The position numbers and the translations under genes are program-made. The notes under the pieces were generated by a model. The model did not search any database, was not told the DNA's origin, and saw only the letters and a program-made list of their open reading frames with translations. From Escallonia rubra (taxonomy: Eukaryota > Streptophyta > Magnoliopsida > Escalloniales > Escalloniaceae), in the NCBI GenBank assembly GCA_033065855.1, contig JAVXUO010001110.1, positions 496,001-560,000 of the forward strand: a stretch of DNA of 64,000 bases, read 5' to 3'. Of this stretch, positions 34,217-63,432 are shown one piece after another; position 1 is the first letter of the stretch; each line of letters begins with the position of its first letter.

Positions 34217-34333
34217 ACATCTCAGACTCCTTACAGTGCTTCATAAGAACCGAAGTCCCTTTGTATTGAGCGAAAACACCAACTCTTGTAGCTTCAAAGA
34301 TCACGAGAAATCAAAGAAACACGAGTTTCAAAG

Positions 34334-35594: not shown

Positions 35595-35599
35595 TAATT

Positions 35600-37229: not shown

Positions 37230-37309
37230 TAATTTTTTGCCTTAGTACAAGGAGATGGCGACAAGATCTAGTCCAGCTGCAATGGTAGCCATAGAGTGTG
37301 AGAACTAGT

Positions 37310-38334: not shown

Positions 38335-38768
38335 AACACAGTAAGTAGACGTGCTAGAGTGTTAAGAACACATCCTTTGTAGGTATGAATTCTTTAGAGT
38401 AATGGATATGTGTTAAGGAGATACTATTTTCTTGCCATATGGTCCCGAAACGCCACGTAACCACAAATTTCGATAACACGTCAATATTCCCTCTAAAAGT
38501 TGTCATTCTCTTCTCTCCATATCTAGTTACCGACCCGAGCCATTGAAGGGTTGTCCATTTGAAGTAGAAAATAAAAGCGCGGGTGTATGGTCACACACAT
38601 CCTACACTTCGTAAGCGACTGTTAATTGGCATGTCACAAAAAGAAATTGGCATGATTCAAGAGAAAAAGGCTACTCTGTTCTTAGGCAATATGACTTAGC
38701 AAAAAAGGAAATCAATAATTATGTCATTATCTATGCTAACCCATCATAAGGGCAAAGAAGTAATTCCA

Positions 38769-38883
38769 ATGGTTCCCAAAACCGGTGGCTTTGGATACAG
38801 CCCACCCACCGGAATCTCCAAACTTCGTGCTCTTGCACACCTACCCATCACTTTCTTATATCTCTGCTCAATCACTATAAATA
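38769..38883 (+). promoter_or_regulatory. Conserved WIP promoter block and TATA box, unit 1
   Basis: A block of about 90 bp starting ATGGTTCCCAAAACCGGTGG and ending CCATCACTTTC is almost identical in all three units (also from 46472 and 56044). It stands just upstream of the TATA box TATAAATA (38876-38883), which is 135 bp before the ATG. The block happens to be open in one frame, but it lies upstream of the TATA box, so it is read as promoter and not as an upstream ORF. Confidence 0.65.
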
Positions 38884-39010
38884 ACACCCAAGCGCAAGTC
38901 CAACTTCATCCACGTACATCACAAGTCCTGAAGACCCACTTGACATTACATTCGAAAAATCAATCAGTTCCACTTGTTGTCTTGAATTTCCCCCAAAGAA
39001 AAGAAGAAGA

Positions 39011-39277
39011 ATGAGTTCGGGAAGCAGAGCTTGGATTGCAGCAGCGAGCGTTGGGCTAGTGGAAGCGCTAAAAGATCAAGGCTTTTGCAGATGGAATCAC
39101 ACCATCAGATCCATACACCACCATGCCAAGTCCAACCTCAGGTCCTTCTCTCAGACCAAGAAGTTCTCTTCTTCATCGTCTGCGGTGGTTGCCAGCAGGC
39201 TCAGAGACGAGAAGGCCAGGCGAGCGGAGGAGTCTCTGAGGACAGTCATGTACCTCAGCTGTTGGGGTCCCAACTGA
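39011..39277 (+). CDS. Wound-induced protein (WIP/DUF3774), tandem copy 1
   Basis: This is an intact intronless gene of 88 residues, the usual size for the family. The N-terminus MSSGSRAWIAAASVGLVEAL continues KDQGFCRWNHTIRSIHHHAK, the conserved helix and CRWN block. A serine-rich linker (about residues 46-60) follows, then a charged segment REDEKA-like (LRDEKARRAEES) and the signature MYLSCWGPN. No signal peptide or membrane segment is apparent. In other plants the family is induced by wounding, low oxygen or immunity cues; the biochemical role is unknown. The TATA box is 135 bp upstream. It differs from copies 2 and 3 by very few residues (F in TKKF instead of L). Confidence 0.93.
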   Translation: MSSGSRAWIAAASVGLVEALKDQGFCRWNHTIRSIHHHAKSNLRSFSQTKKFSSSSSAVVASRLRDEKARRAEESLRTVMYLSCWGPN

Positions 39278-39500
39278 CGTTACAAGTAAATAAATATGAA
39301 GGGTTCATTGTAAACGAGCTCTGATTTAGCTGAACATGTATTGCTCCTGTAATTATATGGAATGAATTAGTAGCTATTGCAAATCCATCCTTGCAAACTG
39401 ACAAAGCTAAAACTTGTAGTGGCAAAGCTTGAACTTGTCACGAAACTTTAAAAGGTCGAAGGAACAATGACACATTTTGGTGACAAAGTTTGGAAACAGT

Positions 39501-39700
39501 GACCACCAAGCGCGTAGGTCAGCTGGTAAGGGGTTGTCCTAGCTTAACCAGAGGTCTCGTGTTCGAGCCCTGGGAATGCAGCTGCGTTAAAACTTGGTAG
39601 GGAGAGCTTTTCCGCCCATGTGGTCCTGCCCGGCTCGAACCCGGATTAGTCGGCTCCCAATGTGGTGTCCGGAAACCGGGTGGTCTAACAAAAAAAAAAA
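39501..39700 (+). mobile_element. tRNA-derived SINE, full length
   Basis: This is a 200-bp insert ending in a run of A, flanked by GTTTGGAAACAGT (39488-39500 and 39701-39713), a 13-bp target duplication or 16 bp counting the As. The head has A-box-like GTAGGTCAGCTGGTAAGG (about 39515) and B-box-like TGTTCGAGCCC (about 39560), as in RNA polymerase III promoters of tRNA-like SINEs. Unit 2 has the empty site with a single GTTTGGAAACAGT at about 47196. A truncated sister copy opens the window at 1-109. Confidence 0.9.
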
Positions 39701-39713
39701 GTTTGGAAACAGT

Positions 39714-40304
39714 ACTAAATTAGCGCTTAGAATTGTCTGTGAGAACAACCCAAAAAGTGAATATATGCAAATAGAGCGGCCATAATTTATCTGAAATTAG
39801 TAACTTTGCTTTCTTATCTCCTCCTACTATTGTTTTTGTTGCATCAGAAAAGGAAGAACGCATGTAATAAAAGAAAGCAGCAGCTTTATCTTGTGAAAGA
39901 ATTCAAGATTATTGTGATCCATTCACCATGCTCTTATTTGTGATAGAGTTAGATGATAGCAGGGCAAGTTCTTAACTAATCCAAAAATTATAAATCTTAC
40001 GAACTTATGTTGAGGAATATTGTGAAAAATTTTAGGCTTATGGTTTGACCATGTACAACCATTGCTCATTTTCTATGTCATTAATTTACCACTGCAATTT
40101 TGAATCATTCATTCACTTAGCATTGCTATAAAATCCTAGATCAGAGATGGAATTTTATCTCATATGCTAGTTTTATTTTTTTAGGTATATGAAATTTTAT
40201 CTTCATATTAGAGAGAGAGCGGTTTTCAAAAGATGAAATAGTCAAACCTAAGTATTAATAAATTATAATGTAGAGTAGGTAGAGTTCTAGATTTTCTTTT
40301 ACCT
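39714..40304. other. Unit 1 WIP 3' flank
   Basis: Non-coding DNA that matches unit 2 at about 48000-48500 and unit 3 at about 57290-57600. No gene recognised. Confidence 0.55.
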
Positions 40305-40313
40305 ATTTTTTAA

Positions 40314-41042
40314 GGGGTAATTAGCTAATGACTCTCTATACTATACTCAGTGTGCGATTTCCCTCCATCTACTTTAAAATTAACCACTAAACCCAAATTC
40401 ACCCCCCCCCCTCCCACCCCCCCACCTCTTACGGAAATTGAGCACGTTAGATGGGTCCGTTATAAATAACGTGAAATGGCCAAAATACTCTTATTTTCTT
40501 ACCCTATTTAAGTTTAATATCATTCTTTCAACTTCTTTCTCCCTTCTCACACTTTTACTCAATCCCATATAAATACACATACACGCACACCCAACACACA
40601 CAGTCAACACACGTACACACACATAAAACACACATATGCACAGTGAACACACACACACACTGCTCTCTCTCTCTCACTCACTCATTCACACAAAAAATTG
40701 AACACACCTACCCACCTACACATCGACTGCACACAAACCTAGCATACCGAACACACACACACACAACACACTGCATACACACCGAATAGACCCAAGAAAA
40801 ACACACACACACACAATCTCTCTACAAGCACACACGCACAATGTTTATGTGTGAGCGTTTGTGGGTGTGCACAGTGGGGTGATGGGTGTGTGCACAGTTA
40901 GAAGGAAGGGGGAAAAGGGGCTGACCTGATGGGGGGACATGTGAGTGGAAAGTTGGGAGAAATGGGGTGGGGTAAGATGGGTGGGAGGGGGGGGGGGGAA
41001 TCGCACACTGTATATAGTACAGGGGTCATTAGCTAATTACCC
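40314..41042. mobile_element. Non-autonomous MULE-like TIR element (copy D, short)
   Basis: The ends GGGGTAATTAGCTAATGAC and GTCATTAGCTAATTACCC are inverted repeats. The flanks are ATTTTTTAA at 40305-40313 and 41043-41051 (9 bp). The interior is almost entirely ACAC- and CT-rich low complexity. Unit 2 (about 48515-48530) and unit 3 (about 58998-59025) have the same flanking DNA without the element, so it inserted after the units separated. Confidence 0.87.
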
Positions 41043-41249
41043 ATTTTTTAAAATTATACAAGGCTTACTAACCCTTCTCTAGATTTGTTTGGAATAAATA
41101 TGTACTTATACATATGCACTTAGGTAGCTGGATTTCTAGCACTGAAAAATAAGTCAACATGTTATGTAAACATAAAGCGACCGCTTGAAGTTGTTATGGT
41201 GTAACAATTGTATATATTTTCTAGAACTACACTGCTTATGTCTATATTT

Positions 41250-41700
41250 TATAATTTCTTAATGGCCAAGACCGTTGTGGTTGTCTTGGTGGTGGTGGTA
41301 CATAGTAATAATGGTGGTGGTGGAAGAAAGTTACTGGTAATGGCGGCGACGATGGTGATAGCGCGAAAGTGGAGCAGGAAAAATGACAGCATAGTGGTCA
41401 TGATGGTGGATGTAGCGTGTTCGAAATGAAGGTGGTGTAGGCAACAACCTTGAGATTGTTGTGGTGGCGACATCATCTTGGTGGTGGTGTTGGTAGCGAA
41501 GAGGGCCCTGGTGTGGTGAAAGTGGCACTGTTATCCCGATAGTGGTAGCATTGGTTGTGGTGGTGGGGGTGAAGGTGTGATGGTAGCAGTCTTGATGGTG
41601 GCAGCGGCAATTTTGTGGTGCAGGTGGCAGCATAGTGTGTAGCAATGATGTGAGCGGCAACTTGAAGGTGGTGGTAGTGTTGGTGCAAGTAGCGATGATG
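41250..41700. repeat. GGTGGT-rich repeat, unit 1
   Basis: The repeat begins AATGGCCAAGACCGTTGTGG and runs through TGG-triplet-rich DNA. It is homologous to 48700-49690 (unit 2) and 59230-59900 (unit 3), and similar in style to 23640-23980. The open frames on both strands are low complexity. Confidence 0.7.
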
Positions 41701-41752
41701 ACGAAGTCATTAATTACAGAGTAAATACTTTTTCTACAAATAATTGAAGCAA

Positions 41753-42842
41753 TTTAGATAGCGTTTGACATGATTTTTTTTCCTAGTTTTGTCTCCAGTT
41801 TTGTAAACTTAAGGGAAAAAACTCGTTGGATAGACAATTTTCGTTTTTTTTCCTTCAGTTTTTAAAACGAGGCTGTTTTAGAAAACTTTATTTTGGAGTT
41901 TTGGGTTTTCAGTTTTAATTTTTGTTTTGAGATCCAACCTCCAAACTCTGTTAGAAGTAAAAGAAATGAGCCAATTTTAACAAAATCCATTTCTTTAGGT
42001 GGTCATCCACCCCCACCACACAAACACACACCACCGCTGGTTGTTAGCACCACCATGTGCCACCATCCCCCCCTCCCCACCCCCACCANACAAACACACA
42101 ACACCACCGCCGGTTGTTAGCACCACCATGTGCCACCATCCCCTTCCCTACCCCTACCCCTACCATACAAAACACATCACCACTGTTGGTTGTTACCATC
42201 CTCTTCTTCCCTCCCCTACCCCACACAAAAGCACCACCACCGGCGGCTATAACCACTGGCACCACCCACCATCGCTGCCCAAATATCTAGGCCACCACTG
42301 TCGATTCTTCATGTTTCATGACCATCAATTTGTCCTGCTACCACCACCATGATCAACCGTCAAATTTCTTGCCCAGTGCCAGTTTACCACCATCAGATCT
42401 GGGGTTTGAAGGGTCAATAATGGTGCCTCTGACTACGGAAGCGAAGTCGTCGTCGACGGCGGTGGAGGTCCTTGCCAAGCGCCAGTTTACCACCATCAGA
42501 TCTGGGGTTTAAAGGGTCAATAATGGTGCCTCTGACTATGGAGGCCAAGTCGTTATCGACGGTAGTGGAGGCCAATTTGTCGGAGGTGGCGATGGTGGCC
42601 AAGTCATCGGCGATGGGTGGTGGTGAAGGTTTGTTGGTCGACTTCGAGTGGTGGTGGAGGAATGTTAAGCTATAGTGTCCTAACAGAATGAATTGAAAAA
42701 AAGGAACAAAAAAAAATAATAAACAACAACACTTCAATCAAATGTTACACTGTTTTTGTAAAAAAACAAAAACTAAATTGGTTTCAATTTTTATTTTTTT
42801 TAAAATTAAAAACTAAAACAACAAATAATTTCAAACAGAGCT
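41753..42842. mobile_element. Unclassified DNA-type insert, unit 1
   Basis: The stretch from about GCGTTTGACATG to CAAACAGAGC interrupts sequence that is continuous in unit 2 (about 49735-49770). The ends are weak inverted repeats (GTTTGA / TCAAAC) followed by T- and A-rich tracts. The interior is CCACCA-rich and includes a duplicated block (GCCAGTTTACCACCATCAGA at about 42380 and 42481). It has one ambiguous base at 42090. Superfamily not determined. Confidence 0.5.
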
Positions 42843-43399
42843 TAAGTTTTCAAGTTCCATATGGGCCTTTTCACATTCGTTTGAAAATTACACTCTACAT
42901 GGATGAATCTTCTATAGTTAATAAAGTAGCCTTTGTCAGATCGAAAAATTGTTAATTTCTAGAACTATTATTATTATTATTATTATGTTATGATTGTGCT
43001 AATAAAATTTTGTTCGTCCAAAACATTCCTTGCACGTGTAAGGCCTCTTAACGACTTCTTTCTATCGCGCAACAATTATGCTCTGTCAGATTCACCAAGG
43101 GATTGACCTCGGGAACTTACAAGTGCAATTTTTCAACTAAAGTCAAGTAGACTTAAAGCAAATGGGTACCCGCTCGATACCCATCTCTGGTAGGAGTCTA
43201 GGGGGCGCGGGCAAGATTTATCAAAATTTATGGACACTATTTTCTTGGACTGTGCCCGACGCACCTTGGCTGAGTATACCTGTGGCAGTGGGGTTACCCA
43301 AGGTTTGATCTCCCTCCTTATCTTACATGTTCCTATTTTTTTCCTACCCCCCACACTATGCAAAATAAAACACATAACAACTTTTACTTTCATTACTTT

Positions 43400-44839
43400 T
43401 GTTAGATGGTATATTAATGGCAATTACCTTTTTTCTTATTTTCTTATATTTAGAACATTCTAGAGTTCTCCTAACTTATAAAAGATTCTCTTTTCTATTT
43501 CTGGTAGGATAATTTTATCTTACCTATATAAAGGCCCCATCCCCATTGTACTTAGTTTTATAATGCTCTCTAATATAATTATTTTTTCCTTCAGAGCCAT
43601 ACGATCCGCCGGTTTGAGAGTCTTTCAACTATTTTTGCAAACTCCGGTAGACGGCCTTCTGCCGTTCGTCGGGCACTCGGGCCAATTCATGTGCTTTTGT
43701 GTTCTTTTCGTACTCTTCTTTTCTTCTTGAGTTCATAATTTTGGTCTTTCTTTCCTGCCATTTCTACACAATGATTTTCGCTTATGCTGAAACCTTAGCC
43801 ACCACTCACCCTTATTGTTCATCAACTCTAGCTTATCTCTTTTGCTCAAAATAAAATAAAAAAAATTGTTTCCTTTTCCAGTTACCTCTATCGATTTCCT
43901 TTAGCCCAAATCCTAATCCTATACCCCGATAAGATTCCGTTCCCTCCACCGATCACAACGCTGCCAACCATGCCAACATGCCTCTCATTCAGTTCCTGCA
44001 ATGGATCCTGCTCTTGTCTTTGTTCTGACTCTTACCTTGTTCTTAGTTGTCAGACATCACCCTGAGATCTTTATGGTCGTCCGACCTCGTCCCGGGACTC
44101 CTGCTCTGTTCTTAGTCTACGGACCTCGTTCTGGGACTACTGCCTTATTCTTAGTTGCTAGACCTCACCTCGAGACTTTATAGTCATCGGACCTCACCCC
44201 GAGACTCCTGCTTTGTTCTTAGTCTATGGATCTCATTCTAGGACTCTTTCCTTGTTCTTAGTCGCCGGATCTCACCTCAAAATTTTATGGTCATCAGACA
44301 TCGCCCCCGGAACTGTGCTCTGTTCTTAGTCTACGGACCTCGTTCTGGGACTCATGTCTTGTTCTTAGTTGTTGGACCTCACCCAGAGACTTTGTGGTCG
44401 TCGGACTTCGCCCCAAGACTCCTGATCTATTCTTAGTCACCGGACCTTGCCCGAGACCTTGATGGTTGTTGGACTTCGCCCCGAGACTCTTGTCTGTTTT
44501 CACATTGCCGGACTCTACACATGGAATTCATCTCAACTTGGATCTCACATAGTGCAGCTAGTAACAAGACACCGCTCCAGACTTAACATCCAAACTCAAG
44601 CCTGTTCGTTCTCTACCAACTTGAGTTTGAGGAGGGATGTTAGATGATATATATTAATATGAGAATTACCTTCTCCCTATTGTCCTATGTCTAGAACATT
44701 ATAGAATTATAATAACGTATATAGGATTCTCTTTTTTATTTCTAGTAGGATAGTTTTCTCTTATCTATATAATTGCCTCATTGTACTTAATTTTATAGTA
44801 CTCTCTAATATAATATTTTTCCCTTCACATTTTCTATTA
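43400..44839 (+). mobile_element. Small non-autonomous LTR element, unit 1
   Basis: Direct repeats of about 190 bp lie at 43400-43593 and 44638-44827, both starting TGTTAGATG.TATAT and ending CCTTCA. TCAGAGCCATACGA follows the first (decayed Met-tRNA primer site). GAGTTTGAGGAGGGA precedes the second (polypurine tract). The ACTTT duplication sits at 43395-43399 and again at 44840-44844, so the 3' end may extend 12 bp past the LTR match. The internal part (about 1 kb) has no gag or pol and is largely a tandem array. Unit 2 (about 51985) and the start of unit 4 (about 63360) have the empty site. Confidence 0.82.
44030..44520. repeat. ~106-bp higher-order tandem array inside LTR element
   Basis: The motif TTCTTAGT recurs at about 44039, 44110, 44151, 44216, 44256, 44323, 44361 and 44431, alternating steps of about 40 and 66 bp. 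The combined unit is about 106 bp, present about 4.5 times. Each half-unit has a GGACCTC..CC.GAGACT-like block, so the array itself arose from a shorter repeat. Confidence 0.75.
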
Positions 44840-45582
44840 ACTTTTAAGCTTTAATGGAACCTTAAGACTTAAACATAATGCTCCCAACTCCAAAAAATTC
44901 AGGCAACTAAGATCATAAGAAATTATTAAAACCACTTCAGTACAGTAATTAGTTGGGTTTGAGTACTAAGAACACATTCTTTGCACGTGTGGATTCTTTA
45001 GAATAGTGGGCGTGTGTTAAGAAGACATTATTTTCTTCCTATACGGTCTCGAAATGCCACATAACCATAATTACAAGTAACTCAATTCCCTCTAGAAATT
45101 GTCCTTGAATAGTGAATTGAAGAGGAAAATCAGAGCACGGGTGTACGGTGGCATTGTTTTAAGTGGAGCTCGACTTCAATTCAAAGATGCTATTATAATG
45201 AAGGTATTGTATACCTTTTTGGGAAGGTACTTTTGGTGTATGTTTTTCGCTCTAGGTCTTTTTATATCTATGTTTGTTCGGGCTCAGAGATACAGGGAGA
45301 GAAAATGGCAATAGAGAAAAGGAGTTGGATTTCTGATTGTAAACATTATTGATTAATGAAATCGAAGCCTGGTCATACATACTCCAAGTACGTAGACACA
45401 CTAGTGAACCTCCTAAATCTTGTGTCCTGCTTTTGTTTTTTTTTATTTCTCATTTTTATTCTTAGATATATTGTTGCGTTGTTGTACCATTTTTTGTAAC
45501 ACACGTATCCTACATCTCGTAGGCATTGTCAATTGCATTTTTCAAGAGAAATTATCATGTCTCAAGAGAAAAAGGCTAAAGG

Positions 45583-46390
45583 TGGGTTTTACAACGCAAT
45601 TAAGTAATTAAAATTTTCAATGATTTTTAATTAAGTGTGTTTCATAACGCTTAACGTTGTATCACTTAAAAAATTAATTTCTACTAAAAATAGACAAAAA
45701 AATTAAGTCATTGTGGACTTATTAAATGCTTATCACTTAATTCGAAGTGAAAATTTTACATAAAAAAAAATAATTACCACCGTAATGTTATCTCAATGAA
45801 TTTGCTAACAACACAATCTCTACCACACTACAACCACCACTACTACTATCAATCACTTTTGCTACCAGCGCCACAATTACCATGACCTAGCCACCACCAC
45901 AACACCATCGCCGCCATCAGCACGTCCACGTCCGTCAAAATCATATAAATATTCATCACACAACAACAAATGTCATGAACGCCATGTCGTTGCCTATTGC
46001 TACCACCATAATTACTAACATCATGTCTTCATGCACCACAGCTGTCATCATTGATACCTTTTTGTTGCCACCACCACCGTTATTACTACATTGTCACTAC
46101 CACCATCACCACCAACAACATTTTGGCAAAAACAAAAAAACTTATAAAGTACATAAATAAATCCATAAAATTAAATAAATCCATAATATTGGTAAGATGG
46201 ATAAATTTATAAATGGAATAATTTTTAGACATTTGGCTTCGATTTATCAAACATATTAACTTAGTTTTCAATAAGAATCCAGTCTCTTAAAGTTTTTAAT
46301 TTTACAAATTTAACATTTATTCTTTTGGCACTTAAATTTTAATTTTATCAAACAAGATGTAACTCTAATTTTCAAATATCATCATCGTAG
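45583..46390. mobile_element. CCACCA-rich insert in unit 2
   Basis: Compared with unit 1 (about 38670-38690), extra DNA appears between GAGAAAAAGGCTA and CATTAGGTCTAAGC. It begins AAGGTGGGTTTTACAACGC, has CCACCA-rich centre DNA and ends with TTATCAAACA-type motifs. It resembles 24920-25560. The ends and target duplication are not clear, and about 13 bp of unit-1 sequence are missing at the site. Confidence 0.5.
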
Positions 46391-46471
46391 GCATTAGGTC
46401 TAAGCAAAAAAGAAATCACTTCTGAAGTCATTGTCTATGCTAGCCCATCATAGGGGCAATGAAGTAATTCC

Positions 46472-46598
46472 AATGGTTCCCAAAACCGGTGGCTTTGGAT
46501 ACAGCCCACCCACCGGAATCTCCAAACTTCGTGCTCTTGCTCACCTACCCATCACTTTCATATCTCCATCATTAATTCACTCTTTATGTATATATATA
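46472..46598 (+). promoter_or_regulatory. Conserved WIP promoter block and TATA box, unit 2
   Basis: The block is nearly identical to those of units 1 and 3. The TATA box is the TATATATA stretch at about 46589-46598, about 130 bp upstream of the ATG. Confidence 0.65.
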
Positions 46599-46717
46599 CC
46601 ACACAACGCAAGTCCATCTTCATATTACAAGTCCTGAAAACCAACTTGATATTACGCTTGAAAAATCAATCAGTTTCACTTTGTTGTCTAGAATTCCCCC
46701 CAAAGAAAAGAAGAAGA

Positions 46718-46984
46718 ATGAGTTCGGGAAGCAGAGCCTGGATTGCAGCAGCGAGCGTTGGGCTAGTGGAAGCGCTAAAAGATCAAGGCTTTTGCAGATG
46801 GAACCACACCATCAGATCCATACACCACCATGCCAAGTCCAACCTCAGGTCCTTCTCTCAGACCAAGAAGCTCTCTTCTTCATCGTCTGCGGTGGTTGCC
46901 AGCAGGCTCAGAGACGAGAAGGCGAAGCGAGCGGAGGAGTCTCTGAGGACAGTCATGTACCTCAGCTGTTGGGGTCCCAACTGA
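46718..46984 (+). CDS. Wound-induced protein (WIP/DUF3774), tandem copy 2
   Basis: This is an intact intronless gene of 88 residues with the same domain plan as copy 1: SSGSRAW N-terminus, VEALKDQGFCRWN block, serine-rich linker, charged LRDEKAKRAEES segment and MYLSCWGPN end. The frame is open upstream to 46586, but I start at 46718 because MSSGSRAW is the family start, the other copies use it, and the extra 44 residues cross the TATA region. It differs from copy 3 at one residue (EKAK instead of EKAR), so the units are young or are being homogenised by gene conversion. The 3' flank is almost identical to unit 1 for about 300 bp. Confidence 0.93.
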   Translation: MSSGSRAWIAAASVGLVEALKDQGFCRWNHTIRSIHHHAKSNLRSFSQTKKLSSSSSAVVASRLRDEKAKRAEESLRTVMYLSCWGPN

Positions 46985-47306
46985 CGTTACAAGTAAATAA
47001 ATATGAAGGGTTCAATGTAAACGAGCTCTGATTTAGCTGAACATGTATTGCTCCTGTAATTATATGGAATGAATTAGTAGCTATTGCAAATCCATCCTTG
47101 CAAACTGACAAAGCTAAAACTTGTAGTGGCAAAGCTTGAACTTGTCACGAAACTTTAAAAGGTCGAAGGAACAATGACACATTTTGGTGACAAAGTTTGG
47201 AAACAGTACTAAATTAGCGCTTAGAATTGTCTGTCAGAACAACCCAAAAAGAGAATATATGCAAATAGAGCAGCCCATAATTTATCTGAAACAATAGCTA
47301 CGCTTC

Positions 47307-47989: not shown

Positions 47990-48699
47990 GAAACAATAGC
48001 TACGCTTCTTATCTCCTCTAGCTATTGTTTTTGTTGCATCAAATAGGGAAGAACGCAAAGAGTAAAAAGAAAGCAGATTTATCTTCTGAAAGAATTCAGG
48101 ATTATGGTGATCCATGCACCATTGCTTTTATTTGTGATAGAGTTAGTTGATAGCATAGCAAGTTCTTAACTAATCCAAAATTGTAAATCTTAGTGATTTA
48201 CTTTTAGGAATGTTGTGAAAAATTCTAGGCCTATGGTTTAAACATGTACAACCATTGCTTATTTCCTATTTTCTTAAATTTATCAATGAAATTTTGTATA
48301 GTTCATTCACTTAGCAATCCTATAAAATCCTAGACCAGAAATGGCATAAGATCCTTACTGAGCCTTAATCTCATATGATAGTTTAATTTTTTCAGGTATA
48401 TGAAACTTTATCTTCATATTAAGAGAGTGGTTTCCAAGATAAAAGAGTCAAAACTAAGTGCTAATAAATCATTATGTTGAGTAGGCAGAGTTCTAGATTT
48501 TTTTTGAACCAGTTTTCAAATTATATAAGGGTTACTAACCCTTCTCTAGATGTGTTTAGAATACATACGAACTTATACATATGCAGATAGATGGCTAAAC
48601 TTCTAATACTAAAAACAAGTTAACATGTTTGGTAAATCAAAGTGACTAGTTGAAGTTGTTCTGATTATATATTTTATGTCTATATTTTTATAATTTCTC

Positions 48700-54610: not shown

Positions 54611-54694
54611 TTTAAACTACGTTCAAACCGATCCGAACCATTCAATTTGAACCGAGTGAACCGGTCAAACCAAGGTGTCTCGGTTCAGTTTGGT
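54610..54694 (+). mobile_element. hAT relic, left piece (split by MULE copy E)
   Basis: AAACCGATCCGAACC and AACCGGTCAAACC motifs match the 49056-49621 family. The element continues after the MULE at 55945-56012 and ends GGTTCGGTTTGCGG ... GTACTCACCTCTA, the family's right terminus. The left terminus was not found. Confidence 0.6.
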
Positions 54695-54703
54695 TAAAGA
54701 ATT

Positions 54704-55935
54704 GGGCAAATTACACTTATATCCCTGAGGTTTAGGGGTAATTACAGCCAAGGACAATAGTTTGGACAAATTACACTTATGTCCATTGACCAAACGGAAT
54801 CTTAAAAACCCTAACGGTTTTAATGAAAAGACTTTATTACCCCTGAGTTGGAACCTTATTTATTTTTCAATGCCATTATTTCATCTTCTTATTTTTAATG
54901 CCACTAATGTCATTACTTCCCCCCCCCCCCCAAGCCCATTTGGCCCTTTCTGTCTGACGGCACCCCTTCGCCTGTTGCCGCACCCTTCCCCTTCCCCTTC
55001 CCCTTCCCCGTCGCCCCCACCCTCCCCCTTCCCCTTTCCCGTCGTCGGCGTCGTCTTCCCTCGAGATGTCGCCGGTGATAAATCCCGGGCGGTGGTGGCA
55101 GCTGCGAGATGGTTGTGGGGTTGAGGCGTTGGTGATGGCACTCGGTGAAGGAGCGTGGGGCTGCTGATCGGAGTTGCTGGCCGGCGACGGGCTGCTGACC
55201 GGACGGTTGCAGTGGTAACGGCACGGTCGCATCGGCGCGATGCTCGCAGAGGAACGATGAAGGGGCATTTCGGTGAAGGCGCGAGGAACGAAGTTAGTCG
55301 CCGGCGCCGGCGACCGCGTGTGCTGCCGGTAGTGGGGCTGCCATGGTGTGTAAGAGGGAAGGGACTGCCGGCGTGGGGCGAGGGACCGGAAGGGGCTGTC
55401 GGCGTGGGGCGAGGGGAAAGGGCTGCCGGCGTAGGGCGAGGGGAAGGGGCTGCCGGCGAGTTAGCCGGGGAAGACAACAAATTATTCTAAAAACCTTAAT
55501 CCAAAAATCCTTAATCCTAATTGAGCATTGGATATTTTTCAAGAAAACCCTAATTTGCAAATTAGGGTTTCAAGAGAATCCTAATTTGCAAATTAGGGTT
55601 TCAAGAGAATCCTAATTTGCAAATTAGGGTTTCAAGAATATCCTAATTTGCAAATTAGGGTTTCAAGAATATCCTAAAACTAAAACTGATAAATAAATCA
55701 TATATAATAATAAACAGATATTTTTCAATATATACAGTACAAGGGGTAGTATCGTCATTTTAAAAATATATATTGATGACATCATACAAAAAGTACAATT
55801 TTTGGATGGAACCCTAACGGATGGACACGGCTGATACATTTTAAAAGTGTTTGGTCACGGAATGTTACATTTTGAAACTCGTTGTCCTTGACTGTAATTA
55901 TACCCAAACCTCAGGGATATAAGTGTAATTTGCCC
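54704..55935. mobile_element. Non-autonomous MULE-like TIR element (copy E)
   Basis: GGGCAAATTACACTTATATC and ATATAAGTGTAATTTGCCC are inverted ends with a perfect 9-bp duplication, TAAAGAATT (54695-54703 and 55936-55944). The right half is almost identical to copy A (7772-9021), including the 31-bp palindromic array (55545-55676). The GC-rich interior gives long open frames on both strands (up to 199 codons, low complexity), which are rejected as genes. It is nested in a hAT relic. Confidence 0.9.
55545..55676. repeat. 31-bp palindromic telo-box-like array (copy E)
   Basis: There are four copies of the same palindromic unit as at 8599-8762, with spacers CAAGAGAAT and CAAGAATAT. The telo-box AAACCCTAA is intact on both strands in the first unit; in later units AAACCC is AATCC on one side. 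Confidence 0.9.
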
Positions 55936-55944
55936 TAAAGAATT

Positions 55945-56012
55945 TGTGACGCAAGGTTCATTGGTTCGGTTTGCGGTTTGACCTCCAAACCGAACCGTAC
56001 TCACCTCTAATA
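55945..56012 (+). mobile_element. hAT relic, right terminus
   Basis: TTGGTTCGGTTTGCGG, then CCAAACCGAACCGTACTCAC and CTCTA form the right end of the AAACCGAACC hAT family (compare 49595-49621). It lies directly upstream of the unit 3 WIP promoter. Confidence 0.65.
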
Positions 56013-56043
56013 CTAACCATATAAGGGCAATGAAGTAATTCCG

Positions 56044-56169
56044 ATGGTTCCCAAAACCGGTGGCTTTGGATACAGCCCACCCACCGGAATCTCCAAACTT
56101 CGTGCTCTTGCACACCTACCCATCACTTTCATATCTCCATCATTAATTCACTCTATATGTATATATATA
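56044..56169 (+). promoter_or_regulatory. Conserved WIP promoter block and TATA box, unit 3
   Basis: This is the same block of about 90 bp as in units 1 and 2. The TATA box is in TATATATAC at about 56161-56169, about 134 bp before the ATG. Upstream of the block, unit 3 diverges at a hAT end (56012), so only about 30 bp of older promoter sequence is kept above the block. Confidence 0.65.
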
Positions 56170-56294
56170 CCACACAAGCGCGAGTCCATCTTCATCCACA
56201 TCACAAGTCCTCAAAACCAACTTGATATTACACTTGAAAAATCAATCTGTTACACTTGTTATCTAGAATTTCCCCCAAAGAAAAGAAGAAGAAT

Positions 56295-56561
56295 ATGAGT
56301 TCGGGAAGCAGAGCCTGGATTGCAGCAGCGAGCGTTGGGCTAGTGGAAGCGCTAAAAGATCAAGGCTTTTGCAGATGGAACCACACCATCAGATCCATAC
56401 ACCACCATGCCAAGTCCAACCTCAGGTCCTTCTCTCAGACCAAGAAGCTCTCTTCTTCATCGTCTGCGGTGGTTGCCAGCAGGCTCAGAGACGAGAAGGC
56501 CAGGCGAGCGGAGGAGTCTCTGAGGACAGTCATGTACCTCAGCTGTTGGGGTCCCAACTGA
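56295..56561 (+). CDS. Wound-induced protein (WIP/DUF3774), tandem copy 3
   Basis: This is an intact intronless gene of 88 residues: MSSGSRAW N-terminus, VEALKDQGFCRWNHTIR block, serine-rich linker, LRDEKARRAEES and MYLSCWGPN end. The frame is open upstream to 56256; the ATG at 56295 matches the family start. Two extra bases (AT) stand just before the ATG compared with copies 1 and 2. The coding sequence is nearly identical to both sisters while the 5' and 3' flanks have diverged more, especially 3' of about 56640. The function is as for copies 1 and 2. Confidence 0.93.
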   Translation: MSSGSRAWIAAASVGLVEALKDQGFCRWNHTIRSIHHHAKSNLRSFSQTKKLSSSSSAVVASRLRDEKARRAEESLRTVMYLSCWGPN

Positions 56562-56763
56562 CGTTACAAGTAAATAAATAGGAAGGGTTCACTGTAAACG
56601 AGCTCCGATTTAGCTGAATATGTATTACTCCTGTAATTATATGGAACGAATTGCACGAGCTATTGTAAATCCATCCCTGCAAAATTCACAAAGCTAAAAC
56701 TTGTGGCAAAGCTTGAATTTGTGACGAAACGTTAAAAGGTTGAAGGAGCAATGACACATTTTG

Positions 56764-57140
56764 TGGAAGATTCTGTGTTTGGTTTCCATTTTCTCTTTTT
56801 TCCTTTTTATGTTTTTGATTTTTTGTTTATTTATTTGACTTTCTTAAATTCCGTTTTCAAAAACATCAATTTTGCATCTAACTCTTTACAAATATTATTA
56901 TTACAATTCACTCCCTCATTTTCACTTATAGACGCGTGGAAAATGATAGGTGTTTAATGTTTTTTAAATGTGGTACTTTATTAAATTTCATTATTCATCT
57001 AATAGTGACAATGGTTTTTAAACAAGTTAAAATAAAATTTTAAGTTTTTTGCAAATTCGTTTTTTTCATATTTTCGAAATATGTAAATAGAACAAAGAAA
57101 ATGGTAAATAAACCGACTAGAATTATCAAACTTTATTCAG
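56764..57140. mobile_element. MITE-like insert in unit 3
   Basis: Compared with units 1 and 2, about 377 bp is inserted between GACACATTTTG and TGACAAAGTT. Its ends, GATTCTGTGTTTGG...CCATTTTC and GAAAATGG...AAACCGACTAGAATTATC, are imperfect inverted repeats. No coding potential. The target duplication is unclear. Confidence 0.5.
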
Positions 57141-57196
57141 TGACAAAGTTAAAATTAGTATTGGCAAATGTCTGTCAAGTGGAACAAACGAAAAAC

Positions 57197-57199
<3 letters not shown>

Positions 57200-57252
<53 letters not shown>
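57200..57252. repeat. (TA)n microsatellite
   Basis: There are about 25 uninterrupted TA dinucleotides. The homologous position in units 1 and 2 has only GAATATATGCAAAT, so the run expanded in unit 3. Confidence 0.95.
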
Positions 57253-57253
<1 letters not shown>

Positions 57254-57289
57254 AGCGGCCGCAATTTATCTCAAATAATAACTTTGCTG

Positions 57290-58161
57290 GAAGAACTCAA
57301 AGAGTAAAAGAAAGGAGCTTTATCTTGGGAAAAGAATTCATTGAGATAGAGTTAGTTGATAGCATGGCAAGTTCTTAAACCGTCCAAAAATTGTAAATCT
57401 TAGTGACTTACTTTTGACGAATATTCTAAAAAATTGTAGGCTTATGGTTCAAACATGTACAACCATGGCTAATTTTCTTTTTCTTTTTCTTTTTTATTTT
57501 TGAACTTATCAATGCAATTCTGAGTTATTCATTCACCTAGCAATGCTATAGAATCCTTAATCAGCAATGGTATAAGATCCTATTTGAGCCTATATCTCAT
57601 ATTTTTTGCATATTTAAATATATGAAACTTTAACTTCATATTATAGATTGGTAATAAAGATATTGAAATCAATAAAACAATCATATATTTGGGATGGGGG
57701 TGGGGAGTGTAGGGCTGAATATGATTTTTAAAAATTACTAATTGGGAGTTCAAGATAATCAAAACATGCTTAACCAATATGCTAACTATACAATCTCAAT
57801 GTTGTAGAGTAATAAGTAAAGAAATTGAATTAGAGATGTTTGATAATAAAAAGATTTAAATGGTTGGGTTTGAATTACTCTCAAGCTTACATCTTCCTCT
57901 TCAAGGAAATTGCTTATAAGAGCACTAGAATCTATTAACAATAATCTTTTTCCAGATCAAGATCAAAACCCTTACAAATACTTAGTACTGTCTCCACACC
58001 ACCAAGCACAAGCCTTGAAAACAACACCCAAGCCTTAATCAAATCTTTTACAAAGATCGGTTGTGTACAAAGAGACTTTCTTAAAAGAATCGAGTATAAA
58101 TGAAGTTCTATTGCAATAAAGAGATGAGATAGCTGACGACTTGAAGATGTTCACTATCAAT
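57290..58161. other. Unit 3 WIP 3' flank, non-coding
   Basis: The first part matches unit 1 at 39815-40200. The rest, from about 57650, is specific to unit 3. No gene recognised. Confidence 0.5.
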
Positions 58162-58166
58162 CAAAG

Positions 58167-58480
58167 TGTTAAGTTATCATCTGATCTAAAAGTTTAAGCT
58201 ATTAGAAAATGAGTCCAACAATATTATCATGCTTAATACTCCCCCTCAAGTGCAAGCCCCCAATTGCACGTGGAGAGACAAATCAAGACAAAAATAAACA
58301 GATTGCATGTGGAGAGACAGACCAAGGCAAAAATAAACTGAAGGGGACCAGATATGCAAGCGGGAAGAATTGAACCTAAGACTTTGCCAAAGCAGAACTC
58401 CGATACTATGTTAAGTTACCATTGGCTCTAAAAGCTTAAGCTATTAGAGAATAGGCCCAACAATGTTATCATGCTTAGTA
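58167..58480 (-). mobile_element. TRIM: 314-bp LTR mini-retrotransposon
   Basis: Two direct repeats of exactly 72 bp (58167-58238 and 58409-58480) begin TGTTAAGTTA and end CATGCTTA.TA. The flanks are CAAAG at 58162-58166 and 58481-58485, a perfect 5-bp duplication. On the minus strand the internal 170 bp begins ATAGTATCGGAGTTCTGC (a Met-tRNA primer-site variant, compare TGGTATCAGAGC) and ends CTTGAGGGGGAG (polypurine tract) before the other LTR. This is the full layout of a terminal-repeat retrotransposon in miniature. No coding. Confidence 0.9.
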
Positions 58481-58485
58481 CAAAG

Positions 58486-59225
58486 AACTTCTCACATAGA
58501 TGCTCTACTTGATGATTAAAATCATGAAGATGAAGGGAAAAGAGTTTACTCCTTGAGCTTTTGTTGAGAGATTGTGAACTCACATACATTCCACAAGGTG
58601 CTCTAAGGCCATTCTAGACCATATTTGTTAATGCAGGCATCAAACCAAGGCTTAGCTACACAGTAATAAAGAATATTAACAGTTAAAAGTAACTTGGTTT
58701 ATGCGCCCTTTGTTACTTTTTGACATTAGACTTGATGAAGTTTTCTTAACATCTCTACCATTACTTTCAAATCCTTCTACTCCAATTCTCGTATCCACAT
58801 TCTCAAATGTGTATTCATGAGTAACATTAATATTACTACTAAGCATTTACTCAAGGTACACGTTATAAACAATCAATATATTATTGTCATCAAAGCAAAA
58901 TGTAAGCCTACATATCGAACCATACAGGTAAAAGATACAATAGTTAAAATTAAGTTCTAATAAATTACTCGTATTATATTAGTTAAGTAGAGTTCTAGAA
59001 TTTTTTGAATTAATTTTCAAATTACATAAGGCTTACCGATATAACTCTTCTGTGTGTGTGTTTTTAAAATAAATCTATACATATAAAAATGCACTTAGAT
59101 TGCTAAATTACTAGCATAGAAAAATAAGTTAACACGTTTGATAAACCAAAAGCGAATGTCTAAAAATTGTCCGAATGTATCAAGTATATTCATTTTACAA
59201 GAAATACACATTATTTATGTCTATA
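58486..59225. other. Unit 3 intergenic
   Basis: No gene recognised. 58980-59160 matches unit 1 around the MULE D insertion site and gives its empty version (TTTTCAAATTACATAAGGC). Confidence 0.55.
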
Positions 59226-59229
59226 TTTT

Positions 59230-59900
59230 ATAAACTTTTATGGCCAAAACTGTTGTGGTTATGTTGGTGATGGCGTTGTGTAATAATAATGGTGGTGGAG
59301 GAAGAAAGATACTTGTAATGTTGGTGGTTGATGGTGGTGATGGTGCCTTGGTGGTGGTGAAAAGCAATAACATGGTGGTGGTTGTAGTTTGTTTGAGATA
59401 GAGGAGGTGTAGGATGCAACCTAAAGGTCGTGGTGGTGACGTCGATGTCATCTTGTCGTGGCAGTAGTTTGGTGGCTGTGACGACGATCCTGTGATGTAG
59501 GTGGCAGCATTATCCCATTACTGGTAGCATTGGTGGTGGGCATGAAGGCGAGATAGTAGTGGTCTTGTTGGTGGCGGACGGCGATGGTGTGGTGGAAGTG
59601 GCGGAGTGTGTTTGCTAATAAATGTGGTGTTATAGGCAACTTGAAGTTGGTAGGGGTGGAGGCAGTGATGGTGGTAGCATCATCCTGGTGGTGGCCAAAG
59701 TGGTGTTGTGACAATGTCAAGGTGGTTGCAAGATGACATGGTAGTTATGGATGGAAGTGGTGTTGTCTGTAAAATGCTAGTGGTGGTAGTGTGGTTATTA
59801 GTGGCGGTATGGTTATAATAGTGGTGTCATGACGGCTATAGAGAAGTGACTTTGCAATGGAGATGGTGGCTGTGACATCTTGGTGGACATATTATTTTAA
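59230..59900. repeat. GGTGGT-rich repeat, unit 3
   Basis: This is the homologue of 41250-41700 and 48700-49690, starting AATGGCCAAAACTGTTGTGG-like. It is low complexity on both strands. Confidence 0.7.
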
Positions 59901-60202
59901 CGTGGTATTTTGTCCAATAACTTTTGCCTCTCTCAACTTAAAATTAACTAATAAGTAAATCCCTTGACTTATAACTTCGGTTTCTTCTAGGTAAATTGAA
60001 CAATTATTAAAAAAATTATTTTAAGTGCTTAATTGTGTAATTAAACATATTCTAAGTTAGTATATTGGTTAGGTAAAGTTAAACAATTTTTTGAATTGAT
60101 TTTGAAATTACATATGGATTATTATATAGCCGTTATTAGTCCTATGAAATTAATTAAATTAAAAAATAAGGTTTCCAGCCAAAATAAAATTTGGAGACAT
60201 TG

Positions 60203-61620
60203 CACTACAAGAAAAGAGGGGTGTTGCTATGGCCTCACTCTGTAGCTTGTTGCTAAGGATTTAGGCCGCTGCAACATCGGTTGCAAAATTGAGGTAGCTA
60301 ACTTGTTTTTATGGTTGGGTCAGAAGGGTGTGATTGTCTTCTACTGTCGGGTGGTCTTTGATTAGGTGTTCGTCTTTGGGTGCGGGTTCTTAGGTTCTTC
60401 CTCTATCGGGTTTGCATGTGCAAATCTTCCTTGGTTTTGAGAAGGTTTGTCGAGTCTAGGCTAGGATTTTTTTCAGGGTTTATCTCCCCCCCCCCCTCGC
60501 ACCCTAGAAAGGTTTGTAAGTTTCGATTTGAGGTGAAAACTTGTCTGCGTTTGTTGATTTTGGTTGTTTTGGTCGATGAAAAGACGACGGAGGTTGCTAT
60601 CATTGGTCGAGATGAAGTGACGGTGGAGGTTGTAGTTGGTGGTCGACAGTGATCTGACGGGTGTTGGGCTTTCCTCAGTTTGGCCACCGTGATAGTGGAG
60701 ATTACGACGGGGATAGAGCCTTAATCAAGGATTTCGGCAAGTACTTTCAGATTGTGTAAACCTTGTGCTTGTTGGGGTACTCTAGGGCTAAGCAGCGGAG
60801 GGATGGCTTGGAAAGGTGGTGATTCTGGCACCAGCATGGGTGCACGAGGTTCAATGCGACGATACAGTGTTGGGGTAGGTGTCATGTCTAGTAGTTGGCG
60901 GCTGGCAATGTGGTGTGGTGTTGTTTGATTTTGATTGGTTGCTTTATTTTGGTATTATCTTGTTCTTAGTTAATATTTATCTCTTGTAGTTCATAGTTAT
61001 CATGTTTTTTAAGTTAGGTTTAATCTTGTTTGTACATGTTTATTTTAGCTAGTTAGTCTCCCTATAAAGAAAAACATAATAATAAAAACCAAAAATATAT
61101 TAAAAAATTTAAAATTTAAAAAAAAGGTGGTTCTTCATCTTTTGTTTGCTTTATCTTTGTGGTTTATTTCTTTGTTTTTTTAGTGCTACTTATCGGATAG
61201 GGTTGTCATCCGTTCTTAGCATTGTATGACTATATAATCTTAGATGTTAGAGATGTTACATTCGTTTATTTTCTGATGGTATATATTTATGATAATTCTC
61301 CACACAAAAAAAAAAATCTTGTTATGTTAATAGTGCTTTGTAGCTAGTAATAACTACGGAACTTGTTGTAGCAACCAACATAAGTCGGTAATTAGTGACA
61401 ATACTTAAACATTTAATTGCTTCAATATGTCTGTAACTAAAGTATTTAATCCATAATCAATGATAACACTTGGTAATGTCGATTGCTACGGAATATCAGC
61501 AACTACAATATACTTTGTAAAAGTGAATTGCTACAGAATATTTGTAGCTACAGTATTTAGTCTGTAGATGTTTCAATACTAAAAGTTGCCAATATTGTTC
61601 GGGAAAGTCAGTAACTGGGA
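60203..61620 (+). mobile_element. CACTA-type left terminus with unknown interior
   Basis: CACTACAAGAAAAGAGG at 60203 is a CACTA-type end followed by GTTGCTA and TTGCAAC-like repeats. From 61330 to 61620 motifs such as GTTGTAGCAACC and AATTGCTACGGAATA resemble the subterminal repeats of the other side. No CTTGTAGTG right end was found, so the element is truncated or decayed. The 90-codon frame at 60380-60652 has no recognised domain. The end point is approximate. Confidence 0.45.
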
Positions 61621-61978
61621 AATTAAAGGATTAATGATAAATCTATACCCCACAATATTACCACAATACAACTTAAGTATCAAATATTTGAAAAGTATCA
61701 AACTAGTACCTAAACGTTTGGTTTTAGACTAAATGAGTCGAAAAATGGACGAACATGAAAGACTGTTAAATTTTATTTAAGGGAAATATGTCAACAAAAG
61801 AAAAACAAATCTTAAAGACATGTGGCATTATCACCACCGTGTGATTTACTTAGCTAATTTAGATGATGCCTTAACTTAATTTATTGACTAAAAAACCTAA
61901 ATGAAAGAAAAAACTAGGATTTATTCAAAATTTTACGGACACCTTTTTCTAAGACCCGTGCCTGACCCACCTTGGCCG

Positions 61979-63258
61979 GGATCCCGATCGTCTGCTGTAG
62001 CTAGGGTTACAGCAGGCATGCTGTAGCCCCAGCTACAGCCGTCCGATTTAATTAAATGGGAGATGACGGCTCAGATGAAGCCACGTCATCCTCCTCTTTA
62101 TTCTCCCAAAAAACACACTGCCGTCTCTCTCTCCAAGCCACTCTCTCTCTCTCTACATCCCTCATCCACTGGAACAACCACATCTTCAGAACCGTAAATC
62201 ACCGGCGTCAAATGTGCGTAGATGAAGAATTGGTTTTCAATCTCAATCAGATTACTTCAAAGAAAGTAGAATGAATACAAAATTAACATCTCCCTCAACA
62301 TCTAGATTATTGCAAAATTAACATCTCCCTCAACACAAAATTAACATCTCCCTCAAAATCTGGAATGAACACAAAATTAACATCTCTACTTTTCAACTAG
62401 ATTATAGCAACATTAACACAAAATTAAGATCTCCCTCTAGAATCCCACCATGAAAAATGGCTGCTTTTTGCAGTCAACTCAGATTTTCCGTTTGATAAGA
62501 AGAACCAAAAGCCCCAAGAAAAATTTGATAATCAAATGTCATACCAGTAGGTACAATCCTATACAAAACAGAGCCAAATCGGAGCTTTATACACCGATCT
62601 TGAATCTTCGGACTTCATTTCTTCATGGAACCCCGACGGCGACAACAAATGACTCGACGAACCGAAGCTCCAGGCGTGTCGTCGCCGGAAAGTGGAGGGC
62701 GTGGAGGAGGAGAGAGAGGGATGTAGATTGCGTCGCCGGAAAGTGGATGAGCCGTTGTCGTGTCATCGCCGGAAAGTGGAAGGCGTTGAGGAGTCCCCTC
62801 GCTGTCCATTTCGGATTTGCACCGCTACCGGCTTTCAGATCTACGCCACGCAGCCATGGAAAAACCACCGTCGCCGTCGCCCCGCCATGGTGACACCTCG
62901 CTACAGCTCCGCCACAAAATCTGAACACCACCCGTTCACTCAGATCCAAGGCGCAGCAACCGGCGACAGCCGCATCACCGTCCAAAGCCCCGGCGTCCCA
63001 ATGAAGGATGCTGCTTTGGTCTAGATCCAACCGCAGGAGCTCTCATCGGCCACCGCAGAGATAGAGAGAGAGAGAGAGAGAGAGGGGTTGGAGAGTGAGG
63101 TTGGAGAGAGAGACGGCAGTGTGTTTTTTGGGAGAATAAATAGGAGGATGACGTGGCTTCATCTGAGCCGTCATCTCCCATTTAATTAAATCAGACGGCT
63201 GTAGCTGGGGCTACAGCATGCCTGCTGTAACCCTAGCTACAGCAGACGATCGGGATCC
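61979..63258. mobile_element. MULE with 158-bp terminal inverted repeats
   Basis: GGATCCCGATCGTCTGCTGT at the left is matched by its reverse complement at the right. The match continues for about 158 bp on each side (61979-62136 and 63101-63258) with a few differences. The flanks are CCTTGGCCG at 61970-61978 and 63259-63267, a perfect 9-bp duplication. Unit 2 has the empty site (ACTTGGCCTAGATACC, about 50135). The interior (about 960 bp) has no transposase. It contains a short repeat (CGTCGCCGGAAAGTGGA, three times at 62680-62785), repeated AAAATTAACATCTC (62280-62430) and a GA run. Open frames of 110-147 codons have no domain. Confidence 0.93.
62674..62790. repeat. GTCGCCGGAAAGTGGA short tandem-like repeat
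   Basis: Three copies of GTCGCCGGAAAGTGGA or TCATCGCCGGAAAGTGGA are spaced about 40-50 bp apart in the interior of the long-TIR MULE. Confidence 0.7.
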
Positions 63259-63432
63259 CCTTGGCCGAGTATACCTCTCACCTGTGGTCGTGGGATTACC
63301 CAAGGTTTTCCTCCTCCATGCAATATGCAAAATAAAACACATAGCAACTTTCACTTTCATTACTTTTAAGCTCTCTTGGAACCTTAAGTTTTAAACAAAA
63401 CGCTTTCAACTCCATGGCAATTCGGGCAACTA

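What the first reader, a model, noticed from the sequence alone, without database searches (positions are those of the whole stretch)
38335..63420. Three (plus a partial fourth) tandem units, each with one WIP gene
The order of landmarks (junction CCATGGCAATTC..GGCAACT, promoter block, 88-residue WIP gene, GGTGGT repeat, AAATGGGTACCC block, AATAAAACACA block) repeats at 38.3, 44.9 and 52.0 kb. The junction appears again at about 63.4 kb. Unit lengths differ (about 6.5, 7.2, 11.4 kb) almost entirely because of private transposon insertions. The coding sequences are nearly identical while intergenic parts have diverged, which suggests purifying selection or gene conversion. The array probably continues beyond the window.
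Basis: seen in the sequence. Interest (0 to 1): 0.75.

Follow-up and report, generated by a model that had tools for sequence, protein, structure and literature searches.

The report
Four-copy plant stress-peptide gene array
A plant chromosome carries four side-by-side copies of a small wound- and low-oxygen-response gene, kept almost identical probably by copying between the copies and each carrying the same likely low-oxygen switch; it is a good, dissectable example of a known kind of thing rather than a new kind.

Summary
The array is real. The window is C1162:496001-560000 of a 566 Mb plant assembly. Three tandem units start at 38338, 44942 and about 52104; each holds one intact 88-aa DUF3774/PF12609 wound-induced protein (WIP) gene. 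A fourth gene lies 3 kb past the window (67020-67286). The 63.4 kb "junction" is the right end of unit 3, split by a Tourist-like MITE; no such block precedes unit 1. I found no fifth unit up to about 114 kb.

Gene conversion best explains the near-identical genes. Units 1 and 2 differ at 1/202 sites after the gene but 25/146 before it; units 3 and 4 show the reverse (28/163 and 2/162). Most flanking matches differ by about 10-30%. Constraint shared by all copies cannot produce that reversal. Purifying selection also acts.

The longest stretch identical in all four units (67 bp) is in the promoter and contains an exact hypoxia-responsive promoter element (HRPE). It precedes 4/4 array genes and occurs nowhere else in the window (expected 0.06). 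With published WIP induction by hypoxia and waterlogging, the likeliest reading is a dosage array driven by ERF-VII factors. Expression and protein function are untested. New member of a known kind.

The parts
38338..44941 (+). Unit 1 (6.6 kb)
   Evidence: Unit-to-unit alignments; the unit end block was not found left of it
44942..52103 (+). Unit 2 (7.2 kb)
52104..64000 (+). Unit 3 (11.3 kb to 63434; its last about 33 bp follow the MITE, past the window)
39011..39277 (+). WIP gene of unit 1, 88 aa, DUF3774/PF12609
   Evidence: E 6.1e-35, 120.5 bits, cut-off 27.3
46718..46984 (+). WIP gene of unit 2, 88 aa; frame also open upstream to an in-frame ATG at 46586
   Evidence: E 4.5e-35
56295..56561 (+). 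WIP gene of unit 3, 88 aa
   Evidence: E 9.3e-35
38778..38789 (-). HRPE (GCCACCGGTTTT), 233 bp before the ATG of unit 1
46482..46493 (-). HRPE, 236 bp before the ATG of unit 2
56053..56064 (-). HRPE, 242 bp before the ATG of unit 3
38770..38836 (+). 67-bp stretch identical in all four units (promoter module with the HRPE); the longest invariant run of the aligned block 38744-39479, one base longer than the longest in the gene
   Evidence: a 91-bp query around it hits exactly 4 places in the assembly, all in the array
39502..39697 (+). tRNA-type SINE-like insertion private to unit 1, duplicated target AGTTTGGAAACAGT; empty site in unit 2
   Evidence: class from its look (recalled), not from a library search; its copy number was not obtained
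40314..41045 (.). About 730-bp terminal-inverted-repeat element (GGGTAATTAGC ends), private to unit 1, 9-bp target duplication ATTTTTTAA; MULE-like
   Evidence: many dispersed genome copies
47292..48005 (+). Insertion private to unit 2 with an A-rich end, duplicated flank GAAACAATAGCTACGCTTC and an RNase-H-type (RVT_3) ORF at 47594-47932; looks like a 5'-truncated LINE
52939..56005 (.). Dispersed repeats in unit 3 that find no match at this place in the other units
   Evidence: 52950-54650 has many genome copies; 54704-55940 resembles 7772-9025 and 17139-18498 in parts
61977..63258 (.). About 1.28-kb element with about 169-bp inverted ends, private to unit 3, 7-8 bp target duplication (CTTGGCC)
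44824..44941 (+). Right-end block of unit 1
51986..52103 (+). Right-end block of unit 2
63308..63434 (+).
63434..64000 (.). Tourist-like MITE (GGGTTCGTTTGAC...GTCAAACTGGCCC, target TAA) that continues about 89 bp past the window and splits the end block of unit 3
   Evidence: class recalled from its ends and target
34334..34623 (+). Older DUF3774 paralog just upstream of the array, 70-71% identical in the CDS only, frame broken after codon 33

Best explanation
This is a tandem array of four DUF3774 (WIP) stress-response genes, three of them in the window. It arose by old tandem duplications of a unit of a few kilobases. Shown: the units have since diverged (most flanking matches by about 10-30%) and gained private insertions. 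Strongly supported by the mosaic pattern: recent ectopic gene conversion, with differing tracts that overlap on the coding sequence, homogenised the genes. Inferred: each copy is switched on by low oxygen through ERF-VII transcription factors that bind the HRPE 233-242 bp before the ATG, so the array works as a dosage amplifier delivering one protein from four promoters under hypoxia, flooding or wounding. What the 88-aa protein does biochemically is not known; published work links relatives to hypoxia and waterlogging and to immunity.
For: Family. Four units. Conversion mosaic: differences before versus after the gene are 25/146 and 1/202 for U1-U2 but 2/162 and 28/163 for U3-U4 (Fisher p = 2e-12 on the difference counts). 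Longest agreeing run of variable sites for U1-U2 is 21 sites (39309-39479), reached in 0 of 2000 permutations (six pairs, not corrected). Synonymous differences are 1-5 per about 60 sites. In six one-sided comparisons chosen from the pairs they were below flank divergence, five at p 0.003 to 2e-6 and one at p = 0.054 (U3-U4 against the 5' flank). HRPE: three exact sites in the window, all before WIP genes, expected 0.06; 4 of 4 array genes; 325 exact sites in 566 Mb, about 0.0006 per kb. Among 9 other family members 4 have a site with at most one mismatch within 1 kb (5 sites; shuffles expect about 0.28 in total). The promoter box of U1 differs at 3-5/112 from the others although the sequence on its 3' side differs at 25-28/146-151 (p 0.0002-0.0006). 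Published: a homologue of AT4G10270 (WIP4) ranked 2 in the list of waterlogging-affected genes of both pennycress lines (passage of PMC11688638); four WIPs among up-regulated hypoxia core genes in Brachypodium (passages of PMC10218231); AT4G10265 and AT4G10270 in a table of a hypoxia meta-analysis (passage of PMC9317734; the meaning of its columns was not seen).
Against: No expression data for this plant. The four HRPEs descend from one site, so they are one independent event, not four; genome-wide the pattern is rarer than its reversed control (325 against 620). Five of the 9 other family members have no near-match, and the start points of three of the nine were approximations. The box is better conserved than the neighbouring TATA/leader region only in pairs with U1: for U2-U3 and U2-U4 there is no difference (p 0.78, 0.62), and for U3-U4 the box differs more (7/112 against 2/162, p 0.034). 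The motif lies in reverse orientation to the printed consensus, and orientation-independence was not checked. The conversion test uses 77 variable sites; donor and direction are not resolved. Flank divergence is uneven: the right-end blocks are 89-91% alike in two pairs. The protein model is of low confidence (pLDDT 59.6).
Confidence: 0.72

Rival explanations
1. No gene conversion: purifying selection alone (on protein, codons, UTRs and promoter) keeps the genes alike while the flanks drift.
For: Ka/Ks of the array gene against an intact paralog on C922 is 0.16, so the protein is constrained; the promoter module is invariant even where its neighbours in unit 1 are not.
Against: Synonymous sites are roughly 3-14 times less diverged than flanks, depending on the pair and flank, and the 5' and 3' regions switch partners between unit pairs. 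A constraint common to all copies would spare the same regions in all pairs.
Confidence: 0.1
2. Assembly artefact: haplotypes or collapsed copies joined in tandem.
For: One N at 42089; draft assembly of 3222 contigs.
Against: Flank divergence of mostly about 10-30% is far beyond ordinary allelic difference; units have private insertions with target duplications; searches with 38338-39500 and with the promoter box found no other contig except through the coding sequence.
Confidence: 0.03
3. Recent unequal crossing-over, not conversion, gave near-identical genes.
For: Tandem direct repeats are its natural substrate; it or a similar process must have multiplied the units.
Against: A crossover would carry one whole flank along. 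Here identity falls away on both sides of the gene (for example U3-U4: 97.7% over 556 bp, 80.5% just after, mostly 70-78% beyond with short pieces up to 86%).
Confidence: 0.1
4. The array is not oxygen-regulated; the HRPE match is chance or the box serves another factor.
For: One independent motif event; 5 of 9 other family members lack a near-match; the 67-bp module is longer than the 12-bp element.
Against: Exact match close to the gene in a family reported as hypoxia-induced; conservation of the box in unit 1 against its surroundings; near-matches before 4 of 9 non-array members.
Confidence: 0.25

Closest known systems
Arabidopsis WIP genes AT4G10265 / AT4G10270 (wound-responsive / WOUND-INDUCED POLYPEPTIDE)
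   Same: Same family by name (membership in DUF3774 recalled); locus numbers suggest neighbouring genes; both appear in a table of a hypoxia meta-analysis (PMC9317734, passage)
   Different: Here four near-identical copies on long units with private insertions; the Arabidopsis sequences themselves were not compared here
Tae-WIP of wheat (DUF3774 protein, PMC10489981, passages)
   Same: Same domain; silencing reduced powdery-mildew resistance
   Different: Described there as one copy on each of 6A, 6B and 6D; no tandem array in the passages seen
HRPE-driven hypoxia genes bound by ERF-VII factors (Gasch et al. 2016 as cited in PMC11660084)
   Same: Exact match to the printed consensus GCCVCYGGTTTY within 250 bp of the ATG
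   Different: Binding and induction untested here
Concerted evolution of tandem gene families (rDNA, ubiquitin and similar; recalled)
   Same: Copies within the array more alike at the gene than at their flanks
   Different: Short tracts centred on a small gene, flanks left far behind

Membership tests
DUF3774 / wound-induced protein (PF12609) | Score above Pfam's curated cut-off over most of the 80-position profile | tested here: met
   120-121 bits against 27.3, profile positions 2-80, for all three window genes; fourth gene 119.2 bits
DUF3774 / wound-induced protein (PF12609) | Wound or hypoxia induction | not testable with these tools
   No expression data for this plant; literature only
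Tandem gene array | Flanks as well as genes shared, head to tail | tested here: met
Tandem gene array | A fourth unit beyond the window | tested here: met
   its right end block was not found
Array under gene conversion | Sharp changes of pairwise divergence that differ between unit pairs | tested here: met
Array under gene conversion | Grouping of copies checked against orthologous arrays of relatives | not tested
   The tool says this genome has no relatives here
HRPE / ERF-VII target gene | Consensus element near the gene | tested here: met
   4 of 4 array genes exact
HRPE / ERF-VII target gene | ERF-VII binding and oxygen-dependent induction | not testable with these tools
   No binding or expression data for this plant

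The most novel reading that the evidence does not exclude
Selection for dosage under flooding or wounding maintains a multi-promoter amplifier. Two different forces hold it together: gene conversion keeps the coding sequences one protein, while purifying selection separately guards a 67-bp oxygen-response module in each promoter, as long an invariant run as any in the gene itself (one base longer), although much of the rest of the units decays under substitutions and insertions.
Probability: 0.4. Interest if true: 0.5.

Novelty: new member of a known kind. Interest (0 to 1): 0.36.

Why it matters
WIP genes are reported among strongly flooding-induced genes, and their biochemical function is not known to me. 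An array in which the CDS, the UTRs and the oxygen-response module seem to have evolved under separable forces gives a natural experiment on dosage, and a 67-bp footprint that points to the promoter part worth testing. For genome evolution it is a clear, small case of gene conversion outpacing old flank divergence.

Tried and rejected
Rejected: (a) the upstream ORF that covers the promoter box (38721-39014 and 56044-56298) as a conserved protein; a TATA-type hexamer lies downstream of the box in all four units and the nucleotide identity alone explains the shared peptide. (b) The 75.0-76.2 kb match to unit 2 as the end of unit 4; units 1 and 3 show no such match there, so it is most simply a repeat shared with the unit 2 insertion 50190-51898. 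(c) Unit 5: none found up to about 114 kb in window numbering. (d) Protein structure: pLDDT 59.6, pTM 0.34, three low-confidence helices; the only PDB match up to E = 1 had E = 0.096; no fold search was run on so weak a model. (e) Family tree of 10 DUF3774 proteins: short sequences and weak supports, used only for orientation; the frameshifted paralog, the 30.6 kb member, the C1971 member and the three C75/C1107/C1108 copies were left out of it. (f) One search scanned the two C922 loci in the wrong orientation; one search replaced it for 13 members. In one search the start points of three members were approximations (12.4 kb; 30.6 kb; and C1971, where the ATG that I took is soon followed by a stop), and the C75/C1107/C1108 copies were left out; one search had found no site with at most one mismatch in the C75 locus. 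(g) Papers: no held paper has both 'DUF3774' and 'tandem', nor 'wound-responsive family', 'tandem duplicat' and 'flooding' together; a search for conversion in hypoxia-responsive tandem plant genes gave one unrelated paper; a six-term search listed 12 papers, none of them opened for it. This says nothing about journals outside the library. Gasch et al. 2016 is not held; its consensus is taken from a passage of PMC11660084.
Full report
What was checked. Self-comparison confirms three head-to-tail units from 38338, 44942 and about 52104, sharing flanks as well as genes. Each has one intact 88-aa gene of Pfam family PF12609 (DUF3774, wound-induced protein), at 120-121 bits against a cut-off of 27.3. 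The three window proteins vary at two positions.

The fourth unit. The 'junction' string is not at 38.3 kb: CCATGGCAATTC occurs exactly at 52048 and 63412 only, with a variant near 44.9 kb, and nothing like the block was found in 30000-38337. The block therefore closes each unit rather than opening it. At 63.4 kb it is split by a Tourist-like MITE (ends GGGTTCGTTTGAC and GTCAAACTGGCCC, target TAA, 63434 to about 64089). The last 30-odd bases of the end block follow, and the unit start resumes at about 64123, with a fourth intact WIP gene at 67020-67286 in window numbering. Unit homology runs to about 71.1 kb. The right-end block of unit 4 and a fifth unit were not found up to about 114 kb. So four array genes are known in this assembly. 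Searches of the whole assembly with 38338-39500 and with the 91-bp promoter box hit no other contig except through the coding sequence. A search with 39811-41680 hit many contigs, in the listed rows only through the element it contains (list cut). A haplotype artefact is unlikely.

Insertions. Unit 1 has a SINE-like insertion with a 14-bp duplicated target and an empty site in unit 2, and a 732-bp MULE-like element with a 9-bp target duplication and many genome copies. Unit 2 has what looks like a truncated LINE with an RNase-H-type frame. Unit 3 has dispersed repeats and a 1.28-kb inverted-end element. Other unaligned stretches were not classified. Element classes rest on ends and target duplications as I know them, not on a repeat library.

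Why the genes are alike. Per pair of units, the CDS differs at 2-6 of 267 positions, with 1-5 synonymous changes per about 60 sites. The unit start differs by 14-25%. Downstream matches beyond the gene block mostly differ by 13-32%; exceptions are the 100 bp next to the U1-U2 block (4%) and the right-end blocks, 9-11% in two pairs. Most telling, the region before the gene and the region after it disagree about which copies are close. U1-U2: 25/146 before, 1/202 after. U3-U4: 2/162 before, 28/163 after (Fisher p = 2e-12 for the reversal). In a permutation of 77 variable sites among 685 ungapped columns, the longest agreeing run of U1-U2 (21 sites) was reached in 0 of 2000 shuffles, those of U3-U4 and U2-U4 in 1 each, U2-U3 in 10, U1-U3 in 30 and U1-U4 in 319 (no correction for six pairs). 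Selection common to all copies cannot produce the reversal; short gene-conversion tracts that overlap at the gene can. Of six one-sided tests of synonymous against flank divergence, five gave p from 0.003 to 2e-6 and one p = 0.054. I chose which pairs and flanks to test, and the downstream flank counts include gap columns, which favours the difference somewhat. The protein is also under purifying selection: Ka/Ks 0.16 against an intact paralog on C922.

The switch. The longest stretch invariant in all four units is 67 bp (38770-38836), in the promoter, one base longer than the longest invariant run in the gene. It contains AAAACCGGTGGC, an exact reverse-strand match to the hypoxia-responsive promoter element as printed in PMC11660084 (GCCVCYGGTTTY, citing Gasch et al. 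2016; passage seen). The window has exactly three exact matches, one before each WIP gene, against 0.06 expected and 0 of 100 shuffles with three. They lie 233-242 bp before the ATG with a TATA-type hexamer at -129 to -135; unit 4 has the same. The assembly has 325 exact sites, so about 0.0006 per kb, and 620 of the reversed control pattern, so the motif is not enriched genome-wide. The four array sites are descendants of one and count once. In unit 1 the box looks conserved in its own right: it differs from the others at 3-5 of 112 sites, while the TATA and leader region on its 3' side differs at 25-28 of 146-151 (p 0.0002-0.0006). The pairs without unit 1 do not show this: no difference for U2-U3 and U2-U4, and the opposite for U3-U4 (7/112 against 2/162, p 0.034), as expected if conversion also covered that leader in those units. 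Of 9 family members outside the array, 4 have a site with at most one mismatch in the kilobase upstream (5 sites, about 0.28 expected in total) and 5 have none (three start points approximate).

Reading. Published passages tie the family to low oxygen (PMC11688638; PMC10218231; PMC9317734) and to immunity (PMC10489981, which cites other work on Arabidopsis WIPs that I did not see). The best account is a set of four ERF-VII-driven copies that raise the dose of one small protein, kept the same by conversion. Array and family are shown; conversion is strongly supported; oxygen control is inferred from sequence and relatives; dosage as the selected advantage is a proposal. WIP biochemistry remains open: the fold model is weak and no convincing solved relative was found by sequence.

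Wider setting. The array sits in a cluster of DUF3774 genes over about 80 kb of C1162: one at 12.4 kb (+), weak members at 13.5 and 30.6 kb (-), a frameshifted copy at 34.3 kb, the four array genes, and two diverged members at 86.2 and 91.9 kb in window numbering. Elsewhere there is a pair on C922, one on C1971, and a stop-bearing copy with identical scores on C75, C1107 and C1108. The search scores only its best candidates, so the family count is a lower bound.

Noticed in passing
34334-34623: A diverged DUF3774 paralog directly upstream of the array (70-71% identical in the CDS, no shared flanks found) has its frame broken after codon 33; a pseudogene or a sequencing error.
   Followed up: partly
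13493-13744 (-), 30551-30703 (-), 12458-12637 (+): Three more DUF3774-like pieces, one of them below Pfam's cut-off and one seen only as a 51-residue similarity to it; the window sits in a larger cluster of the family.
   Followed up: partly
46586-46984: Unit 2 has a leader open in frame with an upstream ATG, which would add 44 residues to its WIP protein; the ORF list shows no such extension for units 1 and 3.
   Followed up: no
7772-9025, 17139-18498, 54704-55940: Three places in the window share pieces of the same dispersed element (79-97% alike in parts).
   Followed up: no
21913-22221 (-): DUF4283 frame (78 bits), typical of plant retroelement remains (recalled).
   Followed up: no
42089: The only N of the window, inside unit 1.
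   Followed up: no
L013, L014, L015: A DUF3774-like copy with one TAG and identical scores on three different short contigs (C75, C1107, C1108): redundant contigs or a duplicated pseudogene.
   Followed up: no
L010 (C1971), about 215 bp before the DUF3774 match: A relative on another contig has a one-mismatch HRPE in the opposite orientation, about 40 bp before a TATA-type hexamer; its true start codon was not settled.
   Followed up: partly
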